Below are positions 6,112 through 40,877 of a stretch of DNA of 64,000 bases, in pieces. Within the stretch, counting starts at the first letter, position 1. Each line of letters starts with the position of its first letter. The position numbers and the translations under genes were made by a program. Below the pieces are notes generated by a model. The model was not told the DNA's origin, made no database searches, and was given only the letters and a program-made list of their open reading frames with translations. Origin of the DNA: a virus; the IMG/VR virus record IMGVR_UViG_3300043773_000356, positions 1 through 64,000 of that record; one strand, given 5' to 3'.

Positions 6112-6768
6112 TTAAACTTTATAAGTTACGCTAAATTGAATTCGTGCAGAATTTCCTAAAACAGCTTGATTGATGTTATTAGTTCCTGATAATGATGTTT
6201 GTGTATGAAAGACTAGATTAGTTGTTCCAGGTTCTACTGCGGTAGTCATTGAATACACAGATTGCGCCAAATTAGCAAAATAACCGGTACTTCCTGGCTG
6301 TACATAAGACCCGTTGCTAGTAAAAGGTAGTCCATATACTCGTGTTGTGGAACCAGTACCAATTAAATTTATTGTTATTTCACCCCACACAACTACAGTA
6401 TTACCTATTTTTGTGTATGAAGCAGTTTGTGTTGTGTATGTTGCAGTTCCACCAACATTTGGTGTCCAAGTCCCTTCCTCATAATCATCCAGCGTATTAG
6501 CGTCTGAGGATGCAGATTGCGTGGCGGGGAAGGTGATGCCGTTGGATACTTGTATAACCCCTCCAGAAGCATTGTTGGTGGTTGTACCAACTAGCAAGTT
6601 ACCACCGGAGGTGATACGCATCCGCTCGGAGCCACCCGTTGATAAAGCAACCGTATCAGCAGCAGGATAAAACAGGCCCGTGTTTGCGTCAGTGCCTTGG
6701 AACGCTGGTGTTGATGCTGAACCGTCAGGACCAGCTATGCCGGTCGTACCATTGATAGTTACGGGCAT
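6112..6768 (-). CDS. Tail fibre / adhesin protein (218 aa)
   Basis: A 218-aa fibre protein. The N-terminus MPVTINGTTGIAGPDGSAS and the GTDANTGLFYPAADTVALST and GGSERMRI motifs are typical of phage fibre shafts that fold as trimers. It shares the TFPATQSASSDANTLDDY segment with 5199-5819, then has its own C-terminal beta domain ending RIQFSVTYKV. It lies 2 nt after the S74-type fibre gene. It probably contributes to receptor binding, or decorates the main fibre. Confidence 0.7.
   Translation of the reverse strand: MPVTINGTTGIAGPDGSASTPAFQGTDANTGLFYPAADTVALSTGGSERMRITSGGNLLVGTTTNNASGGVIQVSNGITFPATQSASSDANTLDDYEEGTWTPNVGGTATYTTQTASYTKIGNTVVVWGEITINLIGTGSTTRVYGLPFTSNGSYVQPGSTGYFANLAQSVYSMTTAVEPGTTNLVFHTQTSLSGTNNINQAVLGNSARIQFSVTYKV
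6461..6540. repeat. 80-bp direct repeat, copy 2 (fibre shaft segment)
   Basis: Partner of 5536-5615, about 925 bp away in the same orientation, with one mismatch seen by eye. Recombination between the two would delete or duplicate the fibre plus small-gene cassette. Confidence 0.85.
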
Positions 6769-6770
6769 GA

Positions 6771-8027
6771 TTAGTTTCCTTTGAGGGTTGCGATTTCAGC
6801 CTCGGCTGCTTGGAGGCGAGTGTTGAGTTCTTTGATGGCGTTGACCATGTGCCAAAACACATTGTCGGAGTCTACCGATAACACACCGGTGGATTCTTCC
6901 TTGACGCAATCAGGGCAGACTTCTTGAAGTTCCTGAGCAATAACGCCGAGTTGGATACCGGTCTTTTGAATTGCGTCTTGCGGCTTGAGTTCAGCATCAA
7001 CTTCTTCCGGCAAACGGTACTCAAAGTTGCGAACACGAATCTGGCTAATCTTGTCTAAGCCTTCGTTGTTATCAACGATGTTCTTCTTCAGACGCCGGTC
7101 AGAAGTCGTAGACCAAGACGATGAGTTGTTACCTTGGTAGACACCACCACCGCCTGGGCTAATAAACCCGGTGGTTGATCCTTTTCCGGTAAGAGCGCTA
7201 CCGCCCGCTGAACCGATTACAAGTTCATTTGAGTTGGTTGCTGCACTACCCCTAGTGTTATAACCTAAGAAAACATTATCATCGCCTGTTGTTGTAAGTA
7301 ATCCCGCGCTTGCACCAATACAAATGTTTCTTGCGCCGGTTGTAATTGCAACGCCTGAATTATTCCCTACGCCTGTGTTTTCAGCGCCAGTAGCCGCGTA
7401 TATTGATTTATAACCAACGGCGGTGCTGTTATTAGATGTAGTGTTGCTATATCCCGCCTGATAACCAACAGCAGTGTTGTTGGAGGCGGTGGTGTTGGTT
7501 AAGAGAGCTTGGAAACCAATAGCAACATTATAATTTGCGGTTGTGCTATCCCTCAAAGCGTCTTTACCAACAACCGTGTTTTGCGCTCCAGTCGTTAAAG
7601 TAACCGAAGAGTTAGCCCCAACTGATACGTTGTCAGTTCCACTAGTATTTGCACCAAGTGCGTCACGTCCTACAGCCGTATTTCTTATGCCAGTCGTATT
7701 CGCATCTAACGCCTGATAACCAACAGCGGTGTTGTCTGAGCCAGTGCTATTGCTATAGAGGGCTGATGCCCCCACCGCAGTGTTGCTAACCCCCGTCGTA
7801 CTCGGCGCAGCGTTATATCCAAGCGCAGTCAGATAAGGCGAAGCACCACCCGTTGTCATCGACCCATACACCGGACCCAGTGTGGTAGGCGTGGCGGCAG
7901 AAGCTGTCGTTATGATGGTCCCTGCCGCAGCAGGTAAGGTCACGGTGTAAGTGCTATTCGTATTCGGTGCGGCTATAGTGACAATACCTGTCCCAGACGC
8001 ATCACCCGATAATTTCAGTTGTGACAT
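6771..8027 (-). CDS. Tail fibre with C-terminal S74 intramolecular chaperone
   Basis: A 418-aa fibre. Residues about 60-290 are repeats of the NTAVGxxAL type (SNTAVGASALYSNSTGSDN, then NTAVGYQALDANTTG), a head-domain pattern shared with trimeric autotransporters. The C-terminal ~110 residues are a Peptidase_S74 chaperone: TSDRRLKKNI carries the Ser of the self-cleavage site, followed by FEYR, IQLGVIAQELQEVCP and a trimerising coil (NAIKELNTRLQAAEAEIATL). In this family the chaperone guides trimer folding and is then cut off. This is probably the main receptor-binding fibre. Confidence 0.85.
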   Translation of the reverse strand: MSQLKLSGDASGTGIVTIAAPNTNSTYTVTLPAAAGTIITTASAATPTTLGPVYGSMTTGGASPYLTALGYNAAPSTTGVSNTAVGASALYSNSTGSDNTAVGYQALDANTTGIRNTAVGRDALGANTSGTDNVSVGANSSVTLTTGAQNTVVGKDALRDSTTANYNVAIGFQALLTNTTASNNTAVGYQAGYSNTTSNNSTAVGYKSIYAATGAENTGVGNNSGVAITTGARNICIGASAGLLTTTGDDNVFLGYNTRGSAATNSNELVIGSAGGSALTGKGSTTGFISPGGGGVYQGNNSSSWSTTSDRRLKKNIVDNNEGLDKISQIRVRNFEYRLPEEVDAELKPQDAIQKTGIQLGVIAQELQEVCPDCVKEESTGVLSVDSDNVFWHMVNAIKELNTRLQAAEAEIATLKGN

Positions 8028-8036
8028 GTTATTTCC

Positions 8037-9032
8037 TTAGACAATAGTCCATGTTGATCCAGACGGCACCGTGACCGTGATGCCAGAACCTACCGTAGTA
8101 GGGCCGGGAGACATAGCGTTGTAATTATTGGGGATCGTGTAATTCGTCGCTACCGTCGCAGCCCCAACAAATAAACTATTGATCGCTACCATCGCTTGAG
8201 CCTGCAACTCGCCGGTGCTTGGCTTGTATAGTAAGTTGGCATTGCCGGTATAAATCGTAGCCGCCGTACCTGACGTAGCTGCTAAAAAGGCGGGATATAC
8301 GTTGGAAGACGTTGACGTGTCATTACTAATCGTTACCGCTGCGGTTGAAAAGGACAACGTGCCTGAACCATTAGTAACAAGTGCCTGACCGTTCGTGCCG
8401 TCAGCCGAGGGGAGTGTCCAAGTGACGTTAGAGGCAACCGTGCCGGGGGATTTAAACGCAACGTAATTAGAAGAGTCTGTGTCGGCTAAACGTAAAGCAC
8501 CTGCTGCACCAATCTGAACATTCGTGCCATCCCACGTTAAGTTAGCGGACCCACCAAAAACGCCTGCGTTATTGAACTGAATCTGCGTGGTAGAACCACC
8601 CGCTGCACCGCCAACTTTCACATAATCTGTACCATTAAAAGCTACTAGTGCTTTTTCACCGGGAACCACGGTTACACCGGTTTGCCCAGACGCTTTAATT
8701 ATTAAATTATAAGTAGCGTCAGCATTAATAATGACGTAACGCCGATTAGAACTTGGGGCCGTAATGGTTGAGTTTGTTGCTAGGCTTGAAACTTTAATCG
8801 CACCATACTGTGCAGAGCTTGCAGCAATATTGGTTGCCGAAGAGTCACCTGTGGAATTTGATAACGATAACGCACCAGCCGTAAAGTCTGAACTTGTTAA
8901 CGAAGTCATTCCCGCAACAGCAATGTCAATATATTGCGTCAGACCGTTGTTGGTCGTATCGCCCCAAGTACCAGATTCCGTACCCGTGACCGGGAGGGGA
9001 AGATTTAAGAGGGTAGTGCGATTAACAGTCAT
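8037..9032 (-). CDS. Tail fibre protein (331 aa)
   Basis: The N-terminus MTVNRTTLLNLPLPVTGTES, then GTWGDTTNNGLTQYID, is a conserved opening of phage fibre and appendage proteins. The rest is Ser/Thr/Gly/Asn-rich and beta-prone, with FNNAGVFGGSANLTWDGTNV, a motif common in shaft regions, ending in a short tip (ITVTVPSGSTWTIV). It lies between the S74 fibre and the repeat protein at 9042-10241. It is likely a structural part of the same adsorption apparatus. Confidence 0.7.
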   Translation of the reverse strand: MTVNRTTLLNLPLPVTGTESGTWGDTTNNGLTQYIDIAVAGMTSLTSSDFTAGALSLSNSTGDSSATNIAASSAQYGAIKVSSLATNSTITAPSSNRRYVIINADATYNLIIKASGQTGVTVVPGEKALVAFNGTDYVKVGGAAGGSTTQIQFNNAGVFGGSANLTWDGTNVQIGAAGALRLADTDSSNYVAFKSPGTVASNVTWTLPSADGTNGQALVTNGSGTLSFSTAAVTISNDTSTSSNVYPAFLAATSGTAATIYTGNANLLYKPSTGELQAQAMVAINSLFVGAATVATNYTIPNNYNAMSPGPTTVGSGITVTVPSGSTWTIV

Positions 9033-9041
9033 AGCATCACC

Positions 9042-10241
9042 TTAAGTCGTAATGGGTGTCCAGTTAGCTGTTTGAGAGTCATTGATCTGCGTCCAACCAG
9101 CACTTTGTGAATCATTAATATTTTGCCAATTAGCGGTCTGTGAGTCATCAATGAGTTCCCACAAAAGCCCACCTAGGATTGCATCAAGCGCAGTAGCCGC
9201 TTCAGACACCGCTACATTATAATTACCATTTACCTCGGTAGTATCAGCTATCGAAGCAGTTTCCGCAACAACACCGCTCAAGTCTACAGTAACCGATACG
9301 GCATCTGCACCGAGAGAAGTTTCGTCAACCGAGGCAAAAAGCGTAATCCCACTCAGAATGCTATCTATGCCTGCGGCTGACTCTTGAATATCACTTGAAA
9401 CAACGTTATTAGCAACAATAGCGTCAACAGCAGAAGCTGTTTCACTTATATCAAAAGGTATAGCCCCGCCCCAAACGCCACTGCCCCAAGGACCAGACCC
9501 CCAAGCCGCACCACTTAAAAATTCCGTATCGGTTGTGTCTTGCGCCGTTGATGTTTCTGATATGACATTATCAAAAGAAACACTTACCGAAATAGCATCA
9601 ACGCCAAGAGCTGCCTCATCGACACTTGCCACAAGCGTATAAGTCGCCGTGATCTGATCTGCGCCTGTTGCCGCCTCAATAACCTGTGCAAGGAATGTCC
9701 CTGCTGATTCAACTGCATCTGCGCCGCTAGCCGATTCTGAGATCGTGCTTTGGTAGGCTAAGGATGCGTCAATAGAATCTGTTCCCGTCGCTGTTTCTGC
9801 AACATTCGGGTTGACTGTAAGACTTGCGTCAGTTGTATCTGCTCCCGCCGCTGTTTCTGCAATGTCCGTGCTTAAGGTTATGTTTGCAGAGGGTGCGTCA
9901 GTACCTGTGGCCGTTTCTTGAGTTTCGGCGTTTAATGTGGCATTTGACGTTATTTGATCCGCACCCGATGCCGTTTCCGCAGCAACAAGATTAAAAATAT
10001 ATTCAGACGTTACAGTCTCAGACGCCGTTGCTGTTTCTTCTGTGGTGGCGTTAAGTGTGGCAAGTGAGCTTATTACATCTGTACCCGTAGCCGTTTCAGC
10101 TACTACTGCTAGCGCAGTGAGGGTTGTATCTAGTAAATCGGTGCCGGTCGCTGTTTCATTGACCTGTCCGTCAAAACTAGGTGTTACTGCGCCTGCGGTA
10201 CTCGCATACGGGGTTTGTGCATAGGCGCTGAAACCGAACAC
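9042..10241 (-). CDS. Repeat-rich tail/appendage protein (399 aa, ETATGTD repeats)
   Basis: The protein is built of about a dozen imperfect repeats of roughly 27-30 residues, centred on ETA(T/S)G(T/A)D with beta-prone stretches between (ETATGTDLLDTTLTALAVVA; ETASGADQITSNATL). A WGSGPWGSGVWGGA insert lies in the middle and a W-repeat tail at the end (DSQTANWQNINDSQSAGW). The codons drift between repeats, so this is an old expansion. The start is GTG 10241, preceded by AAGG. A fibrous linker or shaft is inferred; no enzymatic motif is seen. Confidence 0.65.
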   Translation of the reverse strand: MFGFSAYAQTPYASTAGAVTPSFDGQVNETATGTDLLDTTLTALAVVAETATGTDVISSLATLNATTEETATASETVTSEYIFNLVAAETASGADQITSNATLNAETQETATGTDAPSANITLSTDIAETAAGADTTDASLTVNPNVAETATGTDSIDASLAYQSTISESASGADAVESAGTFLAQVIEAATGADQITATYTLVASVDEAALGVDAISVSVSFDNVISETSTAQDTTDTEFLSGAAWGSGPWGSGVWGGAIPFDISETASAVDAIVANNVVSSDIQESAAGIDSILSGITLFASVDETSLGADAVSVTVDLSGVVAETASIADTTEVNGNYNVAVSEAATALDAILGGLLWELIDDSQTANWQNINDSQSAGWTQINDSQTANWTPITT

Positions 10242-36731: not shown

Positions 36732-36780
36732 CAGGGTGTTGAGCAGTGATAACGATATATAAATTTACTTGGAGAAAATG

Positions 36781-37719
36781 ATGGAAATGGAAAGTATTCA
36801 GCGGTTGACTAAAGATCTTAAGACCGCAGCAGTGAAGTTGACCGACCATGAGGCTCGGTTTCTGGTGGACTATTACTACATAGCGCAGGAGGACCGTAAG
36901 CGGTCCAACAATCAAGTCTTATCGCTTGAGAAAAACCAAGAACCTAACGCCGTGGTGAGTTGGCTTGCTAACCAAGCCGAAACCCTCGAAGGGCAGGTGA
37001 AGCGGGCGTTAGACGCTTACACCGACGGACATGTTATGGGTGCATGGATGCGACAAATCGTAGGTATCGGCCCGGTTATCAGTGCGGGGTTGCTTGCACA
37101 TATCGACATTACCAAGGCACCGACTGTCGGTCATATCTGGAGATACGCAGGGCTTGATCCCACGAGTAAGTGGGCGGGGAAGAAAGGTGCTGAGGACTTT
37201 GTGGCCGAGCACGGCATCAACTTTGAATTAGCAGCGCGGATGATCGGTATGAGCGAGGAAACATTGAGACGCATGGCGCTCAACGATAAAGGCAAAGTTA
37301 CAGAAACAAGTTTTACCAACGCGCTCAAACGTCGTCCGTGGAATTCAAGTTTAAAGACACTGTGCTGGAAGGTCGGGCAATCATTCATGAAGTTTTCAGG
37401 ACGTGATGATTGCTACTACGGCAAGATCTATAAAGAACGTAAGGCGTACGAGGTTGCCCGCAATGAGCGGGGTGATAACAAGGCATTGGCTGAAGAGTTG
37501 ATAGGTAAATTTAAAAAGAGCACGGAGGCGTATGGGTATTTGAAGAGCGGTGTGCTGCCCCCTGCACAGATTGACGCACGGGCTAGACGTTATGCAGTGA
37601 AGCTTTTCTTATCCCATCTGCATGGTGCGTGGTATGAGGCACACTATGGCACGAAACCCCCACTGCCTTACCCGATTGCACATATGGGTCACGCGCATTT
37701 TATCCCTGCACCTGTTTAA
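36781..37719 (+). CDS. Nop/IS110-like protein, candidate TasA of a TIGR-Tas system (312 aa)
   Basis: The core GIGPVISAGLLAHIDITKAP (residues 95-114), then VGHIWRYAGLDPTSKW (116-131), has the helix-hairpin-helix pattern of the C-terminal domain of IS110 transposases and of Nop-type snoRNP proteins (the GPVIGARLI pattern). The helical RNA-binding part follows with WNSSLKTLCWKVGQSFMKFS (187-206). The N-terminal DEDD/RuvC domain of IS110 is absent, and the IS110 catalytic Ser position is apparently Ala (KWAGKK). This is the composition of Tas proteins that hold a guide RNA, without a nuclease domain. The guide-type array begins 11 nt after its stop. The start is ATG 36781, six bases after GGAG. 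An inactive transposase fragment is the main alternative. Confidence 0.8.
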   Translation: MEMESIQRLTKDLKTAAVKLTDHEARFLVDYYYIAQEDRKRSNNQVLSLEKNQEPNAVVSWLANQAETLEGQVKRALDAYTDGHVMGAWMRQIVGIGPVISAGLLAHIDITKAPTVGHIWRYAGLDPTSKWAGKKGAEDFVAEHGINFELAARMIGMSEETLRRMALNDKGKVTETSFTNALKRRPWNSSLKTLCWKVGQSFMKFSGRDDCYYGKIYKERKAYEVARNERGDNKALAEELIGKFKKSTEAYGYLKSGVLPPAQIDARARRYAVKLFLSHLHGAWYEAHYGTKPPLPYPIAHMGHAHFIPAPV

Positions 37720-37730
37720 CCACTCACGAT

Positions 37731-38605
37731 AAGAGCACCAAAGGAGTGAAGTGAGTCAGTATCCGCGAGAGAACCACGCAGATTGAACGAGTCAATGTTG
37801 CCGAGAGAACCAAGGCAAGTGAACGAGTCAGATGCCGCAAGAGAACCAAACTGCTGAAACGAGTCAGGTCGAATGAGAGAACCAATTGATCCGAACGAGT
37901 CATTGAACTTGAGAGCACCAAACGAGATAAACGAGTCAGGACTTATGAGAGAACCAGGGGCTTGAAACGAGTCTATCGAGGCAAGAGAACCAGGGAGGTC
38001 AAACGAGTCAATCCGGAGAAGAGAACCAAGTTTTAAGAACGAGTCAATGACCAAGAAGAGAACCAAGGAATTAGAACGAGTCAGTGAGTACGAGAGAACC
38101 ATTGAAAGTGAACGAGTCATGAGCAGCAAGAGAACCTTAAACGTAGAACGAGTCACGGCTTCGGAGAGAACCAGAGGAAGTAAACGAGTCACGACAGTTA
38201 ATAGAAACAAGCGCGTCAAACGAGTCATTGTGAACAAGAGAACCAAGATAGGAAAACGAGTCATCAGTTAGGAGAGAACCACTTCGAAAGAACGAGTCAA
38301 AGCTTCCGAGAGAACCGATATATAAGAACGAGTCAGGCCAACCAAGAGAACCACATTACGCGAACGAGTCAAAGAGGTAGAGAGAACCACGAACGAAGAA
38401 CGAGTCACTACCTTGAAGAGCACCAACCCATAACAACGAATCAAATATCGGAGTAGAACCAACTGGCAAGAATGAGTCCTTTGACCAGAGAGAGCCATAA
38501 CTCATGAACGAATCAGGAAAATTGAGAGAGCCGTGTGTGCTGAATGAGTCAAAATGAGCAAGAGAACCATTAGAGCTAAACGAGTCAGATCACGCAAGAG
38601 AACCA
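37731..38605 (+). repeat. TIGR-type guide RNA array: 24 full 36-bp units plus a partial unit
   Basis: Each unit is motif A (RAGAGAACCA, 10 nt), 8 variable nt, motif B (RAACGAGTCA, 10 nt), 8 variable nt; the period is 36 throughout except one 37-nt unit (38019-38055). I read 25 A motifs and 24 B motifs. All variable octamers differ from one another. End units are less regular (unit 1 has AGCACCA and AGTGAGTCA; units 20-23 have AACGAATCA, AATGAGTCC, AGAGAGCCA), and unit 14 has AATAGAAACA. Stop codons interrupt every plausible frame, and neighbouring ORFs within it are by-products of the period. The likely product is a transcript cut into 36-nt dual-spacer RNAs; this is inferred from the family, not seen. 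Confidence 0.85.
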
Positions 38606-38639
38606 CGTTACCAAAACGTTTTATAACAAGGAGTAAGAA

Positions 38640-38819
38640 ATGACTAGAGAAGAATTACGTGATGAGTTTGCTAAAGCTGCCATCACAGGAATACTCGCGG
38701 GAAAGTGGGGGCAGATGCCACAGTACAAACCAGAAGAAGCGTTTGCAGATTTTGCATACCGCGTAGCAGATGAAATGATTAAACGGAGAAGTAAACATGT
38801 CGATGATGAATCTAAATAA
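38640..38819 (+). CDS. Small hypothetical protein after the array (59 aa)
   Basis: ATG 38640 has AAGGAG seven nt upstream, 21 nt after the array's final partial unit. It encodes MTREELRDEFAKAAITGILA, then GKWGQMPQYKPEEAFADFAY, RVADEMIKRR and an acidic end. Such helical small proteins are common in phage early clusters and have no known role. It overlaps the next gene. Confidence 0.65.
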   Translation: MTREELRDEFAKAAITGILAGKWGQMPQYKPEEAFADFAYRVADEMIKRRSKHVDDESK

Positions 38820-39564: not shown

Positions 39565-39773
39565 GTGAAAACAAAACAGCAAAGACACCAACAGATGGTG
39601 GGGCAGCGTTTCCCGTCGCACATTCGTACCTAATCCAATCAGGCATGTCCCTGCGTGATTACTTTGCAGGGAAGGCGATGCAAGCACTGGCGCAGCCTGG
39701 GAATTATTTTGATGCAACCGCGAAGCAGGCTTACATGATTGCAGACGCGATGCTGAAAGCGAGGGATCGATGA
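39561..39773 (+). CDS. Small phage protein with SLRDYFAGKAMQ motif (70 aa)
   Basis: The sequence DGGAAFPVAHSYLIQSGMSL, then RDYFAGKAMQALAQPGNYFD, is a short phage family seen in many genomes; the function is unknown. ATG 39561 overlaps the upstream stop; a longer frame from 39534 is less likely. Confidence 0.65.
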   Translation: MSENKTAKTPTDGGAAFPVAHSYLIQSGMSLRDYFAGKAMQALAQPGNYFDATAKQAYMIADAMLKARDR

Positions 39774-40042
39774 GCAGAAAAGCTATGCAGGTGGCGCTTG
39801 AGGCGTTGGAGAGTGATCCAATAAGTCATGCTGGGCTTGTGACCGTATTATCGTCCGGTAAAGGTACGGGTTGCGGGTACACAAACATTAATGAAAACTG
39901 GACACATCTTTACAACGCACCACAAAAGCGTGAATGGGTTGGGCTGACGGATGAGGACATGGAAGCACTTTTCTTGAATGAGGACGGTGTGAGGTTTGCC
40001 CGATACATCGAAGCCAAGCTGCGGGAGAAGAATCATGGATAG
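39770..40042 (+). CDS. Hypothetical protein, copy 1 of gene X (90 aa)
   Basis: It begins MSRKAMQVALEALESDPISH and ends with NAPQKREWVGLTDEDMEALF...KNHG. The same opening (MSRKAMQVALEALE) and the segment APQKREWVGLTDE recur in the 126-aa protein at 40259-40639, so the two are paralogues. It overlaps neighbours by 4-8 nt. The function is unknown. Confidence 0.65.
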   Translation: MSRKAMQVALEALESDPISHAGLVTVLSSGKGTGCGYTNINENWTHLYNAPQKREWVGLTDEDMEALFLNEDGVRFARYIEAKLREKNHG

Positions 40043-40262
40043 AGAAGACATCATCCGCATGGCGCGAGAGGCTGGGCTTGGTGACACCGGTGTGCGAGGA
40101 GCCTTCATTTTCTTTCAACCTGGAACAAATGGGCTTGAACGCTTCGCTACCCTTGTCGCCGCTGCCGAGCGTGAGGCGTGTGCTTCCATTTGTTTTCAAG
40201 AGGGGCCGTCAATAGACGGGGAGCTGATCGCGGAAGCCATACGAGCAAGGGGAAACACATGA
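40035..40262 (+). CDS. Hypothetical protein, copy 1 of gene Y (75 aa)
   Basis: MDREDIIRMAREAGLGDTGV opens it and ERFATLVAAAEREACASICF, then EAIRARGNT, closes it. The end pattern (VAAEREECAKVCD...AIRARGDR) recurs in the protein at 40629-40877. A helical protein of a kind common in phage early clusters; the function is unknown. Confidence 0.65.
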   Translation: MDREDIIRMAREAGLGDTGVRGAFIFFQPGTNGLERFATLVAAAEREACASICFQEGPSIDGELIAEAIRARGNT

Positions 40263-40639
40263 GCAGAAAAGCTATGCAGGTGGCGCTAGAAGCGCTGGAG
40301 TTGTACCAAAGCAAAAGCAGCGTTCAAATGTTTGACGATGCCGTTAAAGCCCTGCGCCAAGCACTGGAGACAGAGCAAGAACCGGTGTGTTGGACTGTTG
40401 CCGATGGATGGGTTTATGCCAACGACACGAGCCAAATTGGTACTTCAAAGGAAGTTAATTGGCAGACCCTCTACACCGCCCCACAAAAGCGTGAATGGGT
40501 TGGGCTGACGGATGAGGAGATTGATGACTTGAGTTATCTATTCCAGAAAATCGACGAAAGTAATGAAACGTGGTTTGATCGTTTGGGTTTTGCCCGTGCC
40601 GTTGAGCAAGCCTTGAAGGAGAAGAATCATGGACATTGA
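40259..40639 (+). CDS. Hypothetical protein, copy 2 of gene X (126 aa)
   Basis: A paralogue of the 90-aa protein with a longer middle (ALRQALETEQEPVCWTVADG) inserted between the shared opening and the APQKREWVGLTDE segment. The start is ATG 40259, overlapping the previous stop. It probably arose from a tandem duplication of genes X and Y. Confidence 0.65.
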   Translation: MSRKAMQVALEALELYQSKSSVQMFDDAVKALRQALETEQEPVCWTVADGWVYANDTSQIGTSKEVNWQTLYTAPQKREWVGLTDEEIDDLSYLFQKIDESNETWFDRLGFARAVEQALKEKNHGH

Positions 40640-40877
40640 GCAGATTAGAGTACGGATTATGTCCGAAGCCTACGACCTTGCGGACCGAGGCGATCACGAG
40701 GGGTACAACGCCATCAAGGTGATGTGCGGTGATGTGTTGGAATCAATAGCTGCTGTCGTCGCTGCTGAGCGTGAAGAGTGTGCGAAGGTGTGTGATGTGC
40801 TTGCTGTACATCCTGAATATGCGTCAGACATTACAAAGGTGGCCGCGCAAGCAATCCGAGCAAGGGGAGACAGATGA
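40629..40877 (+). CDS. Hypothetical protein, copy 2 of gene Y (82 aa)
   Basis: A paralogue of the 75-aa protein at 40035-40262, sharing the VAAEREECAKVCDVL and AIRARG segments. It overlaps the previous stop by 11 nt. The pair X-Y order is kept, so the copies arose together. Confidence 0.65.
   Translation: MDIEQIRVRIMSEAYDLADRGDHEGYNAIKVMCGDVLESIAAVVAAEREECAKVCDVLAVHPEYASDITKVAAQAIRARGDR

What the first reader, a model, noticed from the sequence alone, without database searches (positions are those of the whole stretch)
36781..38605. TIGR-Tas-like locus: Nop/IS110-like protein with a dual-spacer guide array
What is seen: a 312-aa protein with a GIGPVISAGLLAHID core lies 11 nt upstream of an array of 24 full 36-bp units plus a partial one. 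Each unit alternates two different conserved 10-mers with two unique 8-nt segments. What is known: TIGR-Tas systems (described in 2025 from bacteria and phages) use about 36-nt RNAs with two short spacers and a Nop-domain protein related to IS110 and box C/D snoRNPs. Inference: this phage carries such a system without a nuclease domain (TasA-type), so it may bind or silence DNA rather than cut it.
Basis: partly seen in the sequence, partly recalled or inferred. Interest (0 to 1): 0.97.

Follow-up and report, generated by a model that had tools for sequence, protein, structure and literature searches.

The report
Phage TasA-type TIGR-Tas guide array
A phage carries a nuclease-free TasA gene followed by an array of 25 two-part guide RNAs, a genuine member of the TIGR-Tas family described in 2025; comparison with related phages shows the guides are rewritten quickly, but what they target is still unknown.

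Summary
The window is a tailed phage (IMG/VR record of 65,066 bp). The 312-aa protein scores 200 bits against NCBIfam's TIGR_Tas model (cutoff 100). Its AlphaFold model (pLDDT 86) matches only solved TasH and TasR structures at E<1e-3, and it has no nuclease domain, so it is TasA-type. The array holds 25 guides: edge repeat rAACGAGTCA, 8-nt spacer A, loop repeat rAGAGAACCA, 8-nt spacer B. Relatives (249 confirmed in IMG/VR, 9 in cellular genome assemblies) nearly all carry such arrays, and across loci the repeats covary as the published box C/D and edge pairs predict.

This is a new member of a known kind. What is added: arrays next to almost identical tasA genes differ strongly (window versus L003: gene 96.8% identical, 9 of 25 guides shared). 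Shared guides stay in order (872 concordant, 51 discordant pairs), spacers A and B mostly travel together (338 versus 45), and turnover shows no CRISPR-like polarity.

Targets were not found, in the phage itself or its relatives. A T4-like gp46 lead and a codon-phase test did not hold up. Most likely action: RNA-guided DNA binding without cutting, aimed at other mobile elements (inferred, not shown).

The parts
36781..37719 (+). tasA: 312-aa Nop-domain TIGR-associated protein without nuclease domain (an in-frame ATG also lies at 36778; RBS-like GGAGA just upstream)
   Evidence: NCBIfam NF052498 200 bits, cutoff 100; Foldseek PDB hits only TasH/TasR at E<1e-3; phrog_4285 1.4e-43; Pfam Transposase_20 6.9e-6
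37174..37332 (+). about 48-aa insert within tasA (roughly residues 132-184), absent from the 264-aa relatives; weak helix-turn-helix similarity
   Evidence: alignment A1; weak HTH_17 0.035 and Phage_CP76 0.068 within residues 137-166; no Pfam hit for residues 137-183 alone; modelled mainly as helices, residues 133-183
37720..38618 (+). dual-repeat TIGR array: 25 guides, unit = edge rAACGAGTCA (10) + spacer A (8) + loop rAGAGAACCA (10) + spacer B (8)
37720..37722 (+). 5'-truncated edge (CCA) directly after the tasA stop codon
   Evidence: sequence
37731..37740 (+). first loop repeat (AAGAGCACCA)
37749..37758 (+). first full edge repeat (degenerate, AAGTGAGTCA)
   Evidence: rows
38037..38073 (+). 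the only unit of 37 nt (spacer A of 9 nt, ATGACCAAG)
38596..38605 (+). last (25th) loop repeat; spacer B CGTTACCA at 38606-38613
38614..38618 (+). 3'-truncated edge (AAACG) closing the array, followed by TTTTAT; no hairpin terminator found
38640..38819 (+). next gene (59 aa), start codon about 20 nt after the array with its own AAGGAG; array probably co-transcribed between tasA and this gene
   Evidence: sequence; no Pfam hit; no + strand terminator-like site between 36500 and 38900

Best explanation
This is a TasA-type TIGR-Tas system of a tailed phage. tasA and the array are probably transcribed together. The long RNA is probably cut within edge repeats into 36-nt tigRNAs, and a TasA dimer holds one tigRNA, with the edge repeat on one protomer and the loop repeat on the other. 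Spacers A and B then pair with opposite strands of an adjacent 16-bp site (spacerA followed by the reverse complement of spacerB). Having no nuclease, TasA binds, opens and bends the DNA without cutting, most likely blocking replication or transcription of other mobile elements that enter the same host. The phages keep a changing repertoire of guides (8 to 26 parsed per array) that turns over inside the array much faster than the tasA gene. Shown here: family membership, array anatomy, covariation, absence of a nuclease, turnover. Inferred by homology: processing, dimer, dual-strand pairing. Inferred with little evidence: the identity of the targets and the competitive role.
For: NCBIfam equivalog model above cutoff. 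PDB fold matches to TasH/TasR only; profile search TasR 3e-19, TasH 1e-13, IS621 2e-4. No RuvC, HNH or other nuclease domain in Pfam or in the essentially all-helical model. Array anatomy 10+8+10+8 = 36 with truncated edges at both ends. In loci with different repeat consensus, positions 3-8 are complementary in edge and loop (A-T, G-C, T-A) and 4-7 in the edge (C-G, T-A) with A.A in most loops, which matches the published box C/D pair and the extra edge pair (PMC12045711). Terminal motifs change together in edge and loop, e.g. both end in CG in L031/L033 and both are GC..CC in L040. Relatives with arrays. Turnover.
Against: No RNA or binding data. No natural target found: own genome and relatives show no excess of A+rc(B) sites, and a partial test on one carrier genome gave no exact hit. 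The discovery paper saw no phage or conjugation interference with TasR in E. coli, only plasmid loss. No terminator hairpin after the array, unlike typical TIGR arrays.
Confidence: 0.7

Rival explanations
1. It is an IS110-family transposase, or its remnant, beside an unrelated repeat array.
For: Pfam Transposase_20 (IS116/IS110/IS902) 6.9e-6; PHROG annotation 'transposase'; IS110 is a real distant relative.
Against: NCBIfam IS110 model 23.6 bits against a cutoff of 140, while TIGR_Tas is 200 against 100. IS110 structures match only at E 0.6 or worse. No N-terminal DEDD domain: the protein starts directly with long helices. The array is linked to the gene in nearly all relatives.
Confidence: 0.02
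2. The tigRNAs regulate the phage's own genes rather than competitors.
For: The array sits in a same-strand gene block next to HTH genes; a non-cutting TasA could act as a repressor.
Against: No exact A+rc(B) site (gap 0-4) in the own locus for any parsed array, and one-mismatch own hits (8) do not exceed the control geometries (6-14).
Confidence: 0.1
3. The guides target the host chromosome (host takeover or counter-defence).
For: Relatives occur in bacterial genome assemblies; TasA could silence host genes.
Against: No match for one widely shared guide in 369 genomes of the class of the Propionivibrio carrier; no exact match of 11 Halomonas spacer pairs in 360 kb, about 9% of that genome. 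The true host of this phage is unknown, so the test is weak.
Confidence: 0.2
4. The array is a protein-coding or decaying repeat and not a guide array.
For: 36 is a multiple of 3, and a 182-aa open frame runs across the array on the minus strand.
Against: Unique spacers in register with two repeats that covary as RNA pairs across loci; whole guides are exchanged between related arrays.
Confidence: 0.02

Closest known systems
TIGR-TasA (e.g. Flavonifractor plautii FpTasA; Faure et al. 2025, PMC12045711)
   Same: Nop domain alone, dual-repeat array next to the gene, 36-nt unit, edge/loop repeats with box C/D-like ends, truncated edges at the array ends
   Different: 8+8-nt spacers instead of 9+9; about 48-aa HTH-like insert in the Nop domain; 25 guides (most published arrays hold 5 to 15); no hairpin terminator; no ParB partner seen
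TIGR-TasH (Salicola phage CGphi29; PDB 9w02, 9vzx, 9w04, 21kl)
   Same: best fold match; also 16 nt of spacer per guide according to the paper
   Different: TasH carries an N-terminal HNH nuclease, absent here
TIGR-TasR (PDB 9mty)
   Same: best sequence-profile match, 3e-19; same edge/loop pairing rules
   Different: TasR carries a RuvC nuclease and 9-nt spacers
IS110-family bridge-RNA recombinases (IS621, ISCro4)
   Same: homologous Nop-like RNA-binding domain
   Different: recombinase with DEDD domain and a single bridge RNA; below the family cutoff here
CRISPR-Cas arrays
   Same: repeat/spacer array whose content differs between close relatives
   Different: two alternating short repeats, no adaptation genes, turnover without polarity

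Membership tests
TIGR-Tas | Tas protein with Nop-type RNA-binding domain of the Tas clade | tested here: met
   NCBIfam NF052498 200 bits, cutoff 100; Foldseek TasH/TasR E 4.5e-5 to 5.3e-4
TIGR-Tas | adjacent array of two alternating 8-12-nt repeats separated by short spacers, about 36-nt unit | tested here: met
   10+8+10+8 nt, 25 guides
[quoted passage not shown]
   CCA at 37720-37722; AAACG at 38614-38618
TIGR-Tas | box C/D-like ends shared by edge and loop; box pair in both, extra pair in edge, with covariation across loci | tested here: met
   positions 3-8 and 4-7 across locus types
TIGR-Tas | predicted rho-independent terminator after the array (typical) | tested here: not met
   none found on + strand downstream of the array; described as typical, not defining; the Microcystis phage relative has one
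TIGR-Tas | array processed into 36-nt tigRNAs bound by Tas | not testable with these tools
   needs small-RNA sequencing
TIGR-Tas | tandem-spacer DNA targeting, spacers pairing with opposite strands | tested here: inconclusive
   no targets found; codon-phase hint at gap 0 not robust
TasA subtype | no nuclease domain | tested here: met
   no nuclease family in Pfam; essentially all-helical 312-aa model
IS110 transposase | full-length IS110 family model above cutoff, N-terminal DEDD catalytic domain | tested here: not met
   23.6 bits against a cutoff of 140, match confined to residues 39-135

The most novel reading that the evidence does not exclude
TIGR arrays of phages are actively rewritten: guides enter and leave at internal positions as paired A+B units by a so far undescribed, Cas1-independent route, giving related phages population-specific guide repertoires against co-circulating mobile elements, an adaptive-like weapon without a nuclease.
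Probability: 0.3. Interest if true: 0.8.

Novelty: new member of a known kind. Interest (0 to 1): 0.45.

Why it matters
The family is known, so the find itself is no surprise. Its value lies in the comparison: about two dozen arrays of one tasA lineage, with different guides, show that TIGR arrays change fast, in whole A+B units, in order and without polarity. The discovery paper names the origin of spacers and the role of TasA as open questions. The sets listed here, plus an unannotated TIGR-TasA locus in a named Microcystis phage record (Mvi-JY20, PP438412), make those questions testable.

Tried and rejected
Rfam scan: nothing. Self/kin targets: 239 guide pairs against 0.98 Mb and about 3,770 spacers, both pairings, against 1.87 Mb, four geometries, gaps 0-4: A+rc(B) is no better than controls. 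IMG/VR scans of four widely shared guides gave gap 1 more often than gap 0, while a mismatched-pair control was even; the excess fits codon-like composition of these guides and was not backed by the wider test. T4-like gp46 lead (gene named from the Walker A motif by eye): four related contigs share one 17-bp site, but no other guide of the family hits those contigs exactly, so rejected. Codon-phase test: A+rc(B) at gap 0 mod 3 z 2.35 and 2.57 in two sets with a codon model, but with a Markov model -0.41 for the window family and 3.43 for the others, and a wrong-pairing control reached 2.26: inconclusive. Three-base periodicity of spacer variants: none. Host scan of 369 genomes with one guide: zero. 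No TasA relative in the plasmid collection. Self-target check in Mvi-JY20: none, only 4 of its 9 units tested.

Full report
Observation. ORF 36781-37719 encodes 312 aa. The array starts at its stop codon and runs to 38618: 25 loop repeats (rAGAGAACCA), 24 full edge repeats (rAACGAGTCA), 8-nt spacers throughout except one of 9 nt. The first edge is cut at its 5' side (CCA) and the last at its 3' side (AAACG), which identifies AACGAGTCA as the edge. The next gene begins about 20 nt later with its own ribosome site, and no + strand terminator-like site lies between.

The genome. The window is part of an IMG/VR virus record of 65,066 bp with terminase (phrog_38), portal (phrog_1216), major head protein (phrog_371), family A-like DNA polymerase (phrog_17), helicase and primase-helicase genes. 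The nearest terminases in named phages are only 42-47% identical (Pelagibacter, cyanobacterial and unclassified phages). The host is unknown.

The protein. Pfam finds only the IS110 C-terminal domain above its cutoff (6.9e-6). NCBIfam assigns TIGR_Tas (200 bits, cutoff 100); IS110 stays far below its cutoff (23.6 of 140). The profile of 20 relatives finds TasR (9mty, 3e-19), TasH (21kl, 1e-13), then IS621 (2e-4) in the PDB. The AlphaFold model (pLDDT 86) matches eight PDB chains at E<1e-3, all TasH or TasR; IS110 recombinases follow at E 0.6 or worse. There is no RuvC, HNH or DEDD part, hence TasA-type. Relative to 264-aa relatives it has an insert at about residues 132-184 with weak HTH similarity, shared with L003 and L004. 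L071-L073 also match over 936 nt, i.e. 312 codons, which suggests they share it.

Relatives. One protein query gave 40 IMG/VR loci. The alignment gave 249 confirmed relatives there (80 kept) and 9 in genome assemblies, among them Candidatus Propionivibrio aalborgensis with exactly the same two repeats. In 95 loci (window included) an automatic parser found array-like repeats; a few of these parses are out of phase or spurious. A distant relative sits in Microcystis phage Mvi-JY20 (PP438412, 'hypothetical protein' XAI95461.1), followed by a 9-guide array and a hairpin terminator.

Repeat covariation. In edge repeats of different loci, positions 3-8 read A-T, G-C or T-A and positions 4-7 C-G or T-A, complementary in nearly every clean, in-phase consensus. 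The loop keeps 3-8 (G-C, or T-A in L097/L105) but has A.A at 4-7 in most loci; an exception is the GAGTGAACCA/GAGAGTTCCA group, where both repeats pair. Faure et al. report just this for TasR: a box C/D pair in both repeats and an extra edge pair supported by covariation (PMC12045711).

Array turnover. Arrays of related phages share guides far beyond chance. In 23 arrays, 338 matches of whole A+B pairs (up to 2 mismatches) stand against 45 cases where one spacer is identical and the other differs at 4 or more positions (about 2 expected by chance). Shared guides keep their order (872 concordant, 51 discordant). Sharing is 37% in the first two positions, 29% inside and 26% in the last two, so there is no CRISPR-like growing end. 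Local duplications occur (L003, L004, L009, L010). Many pairs come from a few related phages, so counts are not independent events. Examples: window and L003, tasA 96.8% identical, 9 of 25 guides shared; L006 and L009, 95.6%, 15 of 26; window and L004, 86.8%, 4 of 25. Spacers and loop repeats of shared guides differ at similar low rates (0.041 and 0.039 per site; matches were chosen for low spacer difference, so this is not a rate comparison). I read this as loss, gain and recombination of whole units inside the array. The discovery paper's text does not treat this as far as a term search shows, and I found no other paper in the library that does.

Targets. From the published 8-nt 3' overhang I derived the target as spacerA followed directly by rc(spacerB). 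No excess of such sites over three control geometries was found in the own locus or in 1-2 Mb of relatives. Scans of IMG/VR with four widely shared guides and one control pair, a sample of one carrier genome and 369 genomes gave no convincing target. A codon-phase test was suggestive in one data set and failed in another. The question stays open.

Mechanism. By homology (TasR, TasH, FpTasA in PMC12045711) the array should yield 36-nt tigRNAs, one per TasA dimer, pairing with both strands of a 16-bp site. Without a nuclease the effect should be binding, opening and bending. Blocking other mobile elements is my preferred role because the phage and its kin are not targeted and the repertoire changes fast; this step is inference.

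Verdict. It is a new member of a known kind; the turnover data are the part a specialist may not have seen.

Noticed in passing
L039:8846-10780: A TasA relative carries an intein-like insertion (Pfam Intein_splicing 1.8e-4, below its curated cutoff) just before its YGIGPV core, plus a second insert further on.
   Followed up: partly
L289 (PP438412 Microcystis phage Mvi-JY20) 21367-22424: Unannotated TasA (XAI95461.1) with a 9-guide TIGR array of 9-nt spacers and a strong rho-independent terminator, in a phage record with a named Microcystis host.
   Followed up: partly
L062:9759-9966: Candidatus Propionivibrio aalborgensis contig carries a TasA with exactly the window's repeats (GAACGAGTCA/GAGAGAACCA), 6 guides parsed, hinting at a betaproteobacterial host range.
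   Followed up: partly
L033 and L034, tasA: A different insert with a CxxC motif (WCAVCHG, WCSVCHG) after LLAHI in these two TasA proteins.
   Followed up: no
L053 (G021) 6445-9108: DNA polymerase related to the window's is split by about 770 bp between two matching parts that share one long open frame, perhaps an intein or inserted domain.
   Followed up: no
window 39770-40800: Short repeated stretches among small genes downstream of the array (e.g. 39770-39811 resembles 40259-40300; 39908-39957 resembles 40469-40518) that recur in relatives, suggesting duplicated small genes.
   Followed up: no
L070: A TasA relative in a Woesearchaeota assembly has an array with a 34-nt period instead of 36.
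   Followed up: no
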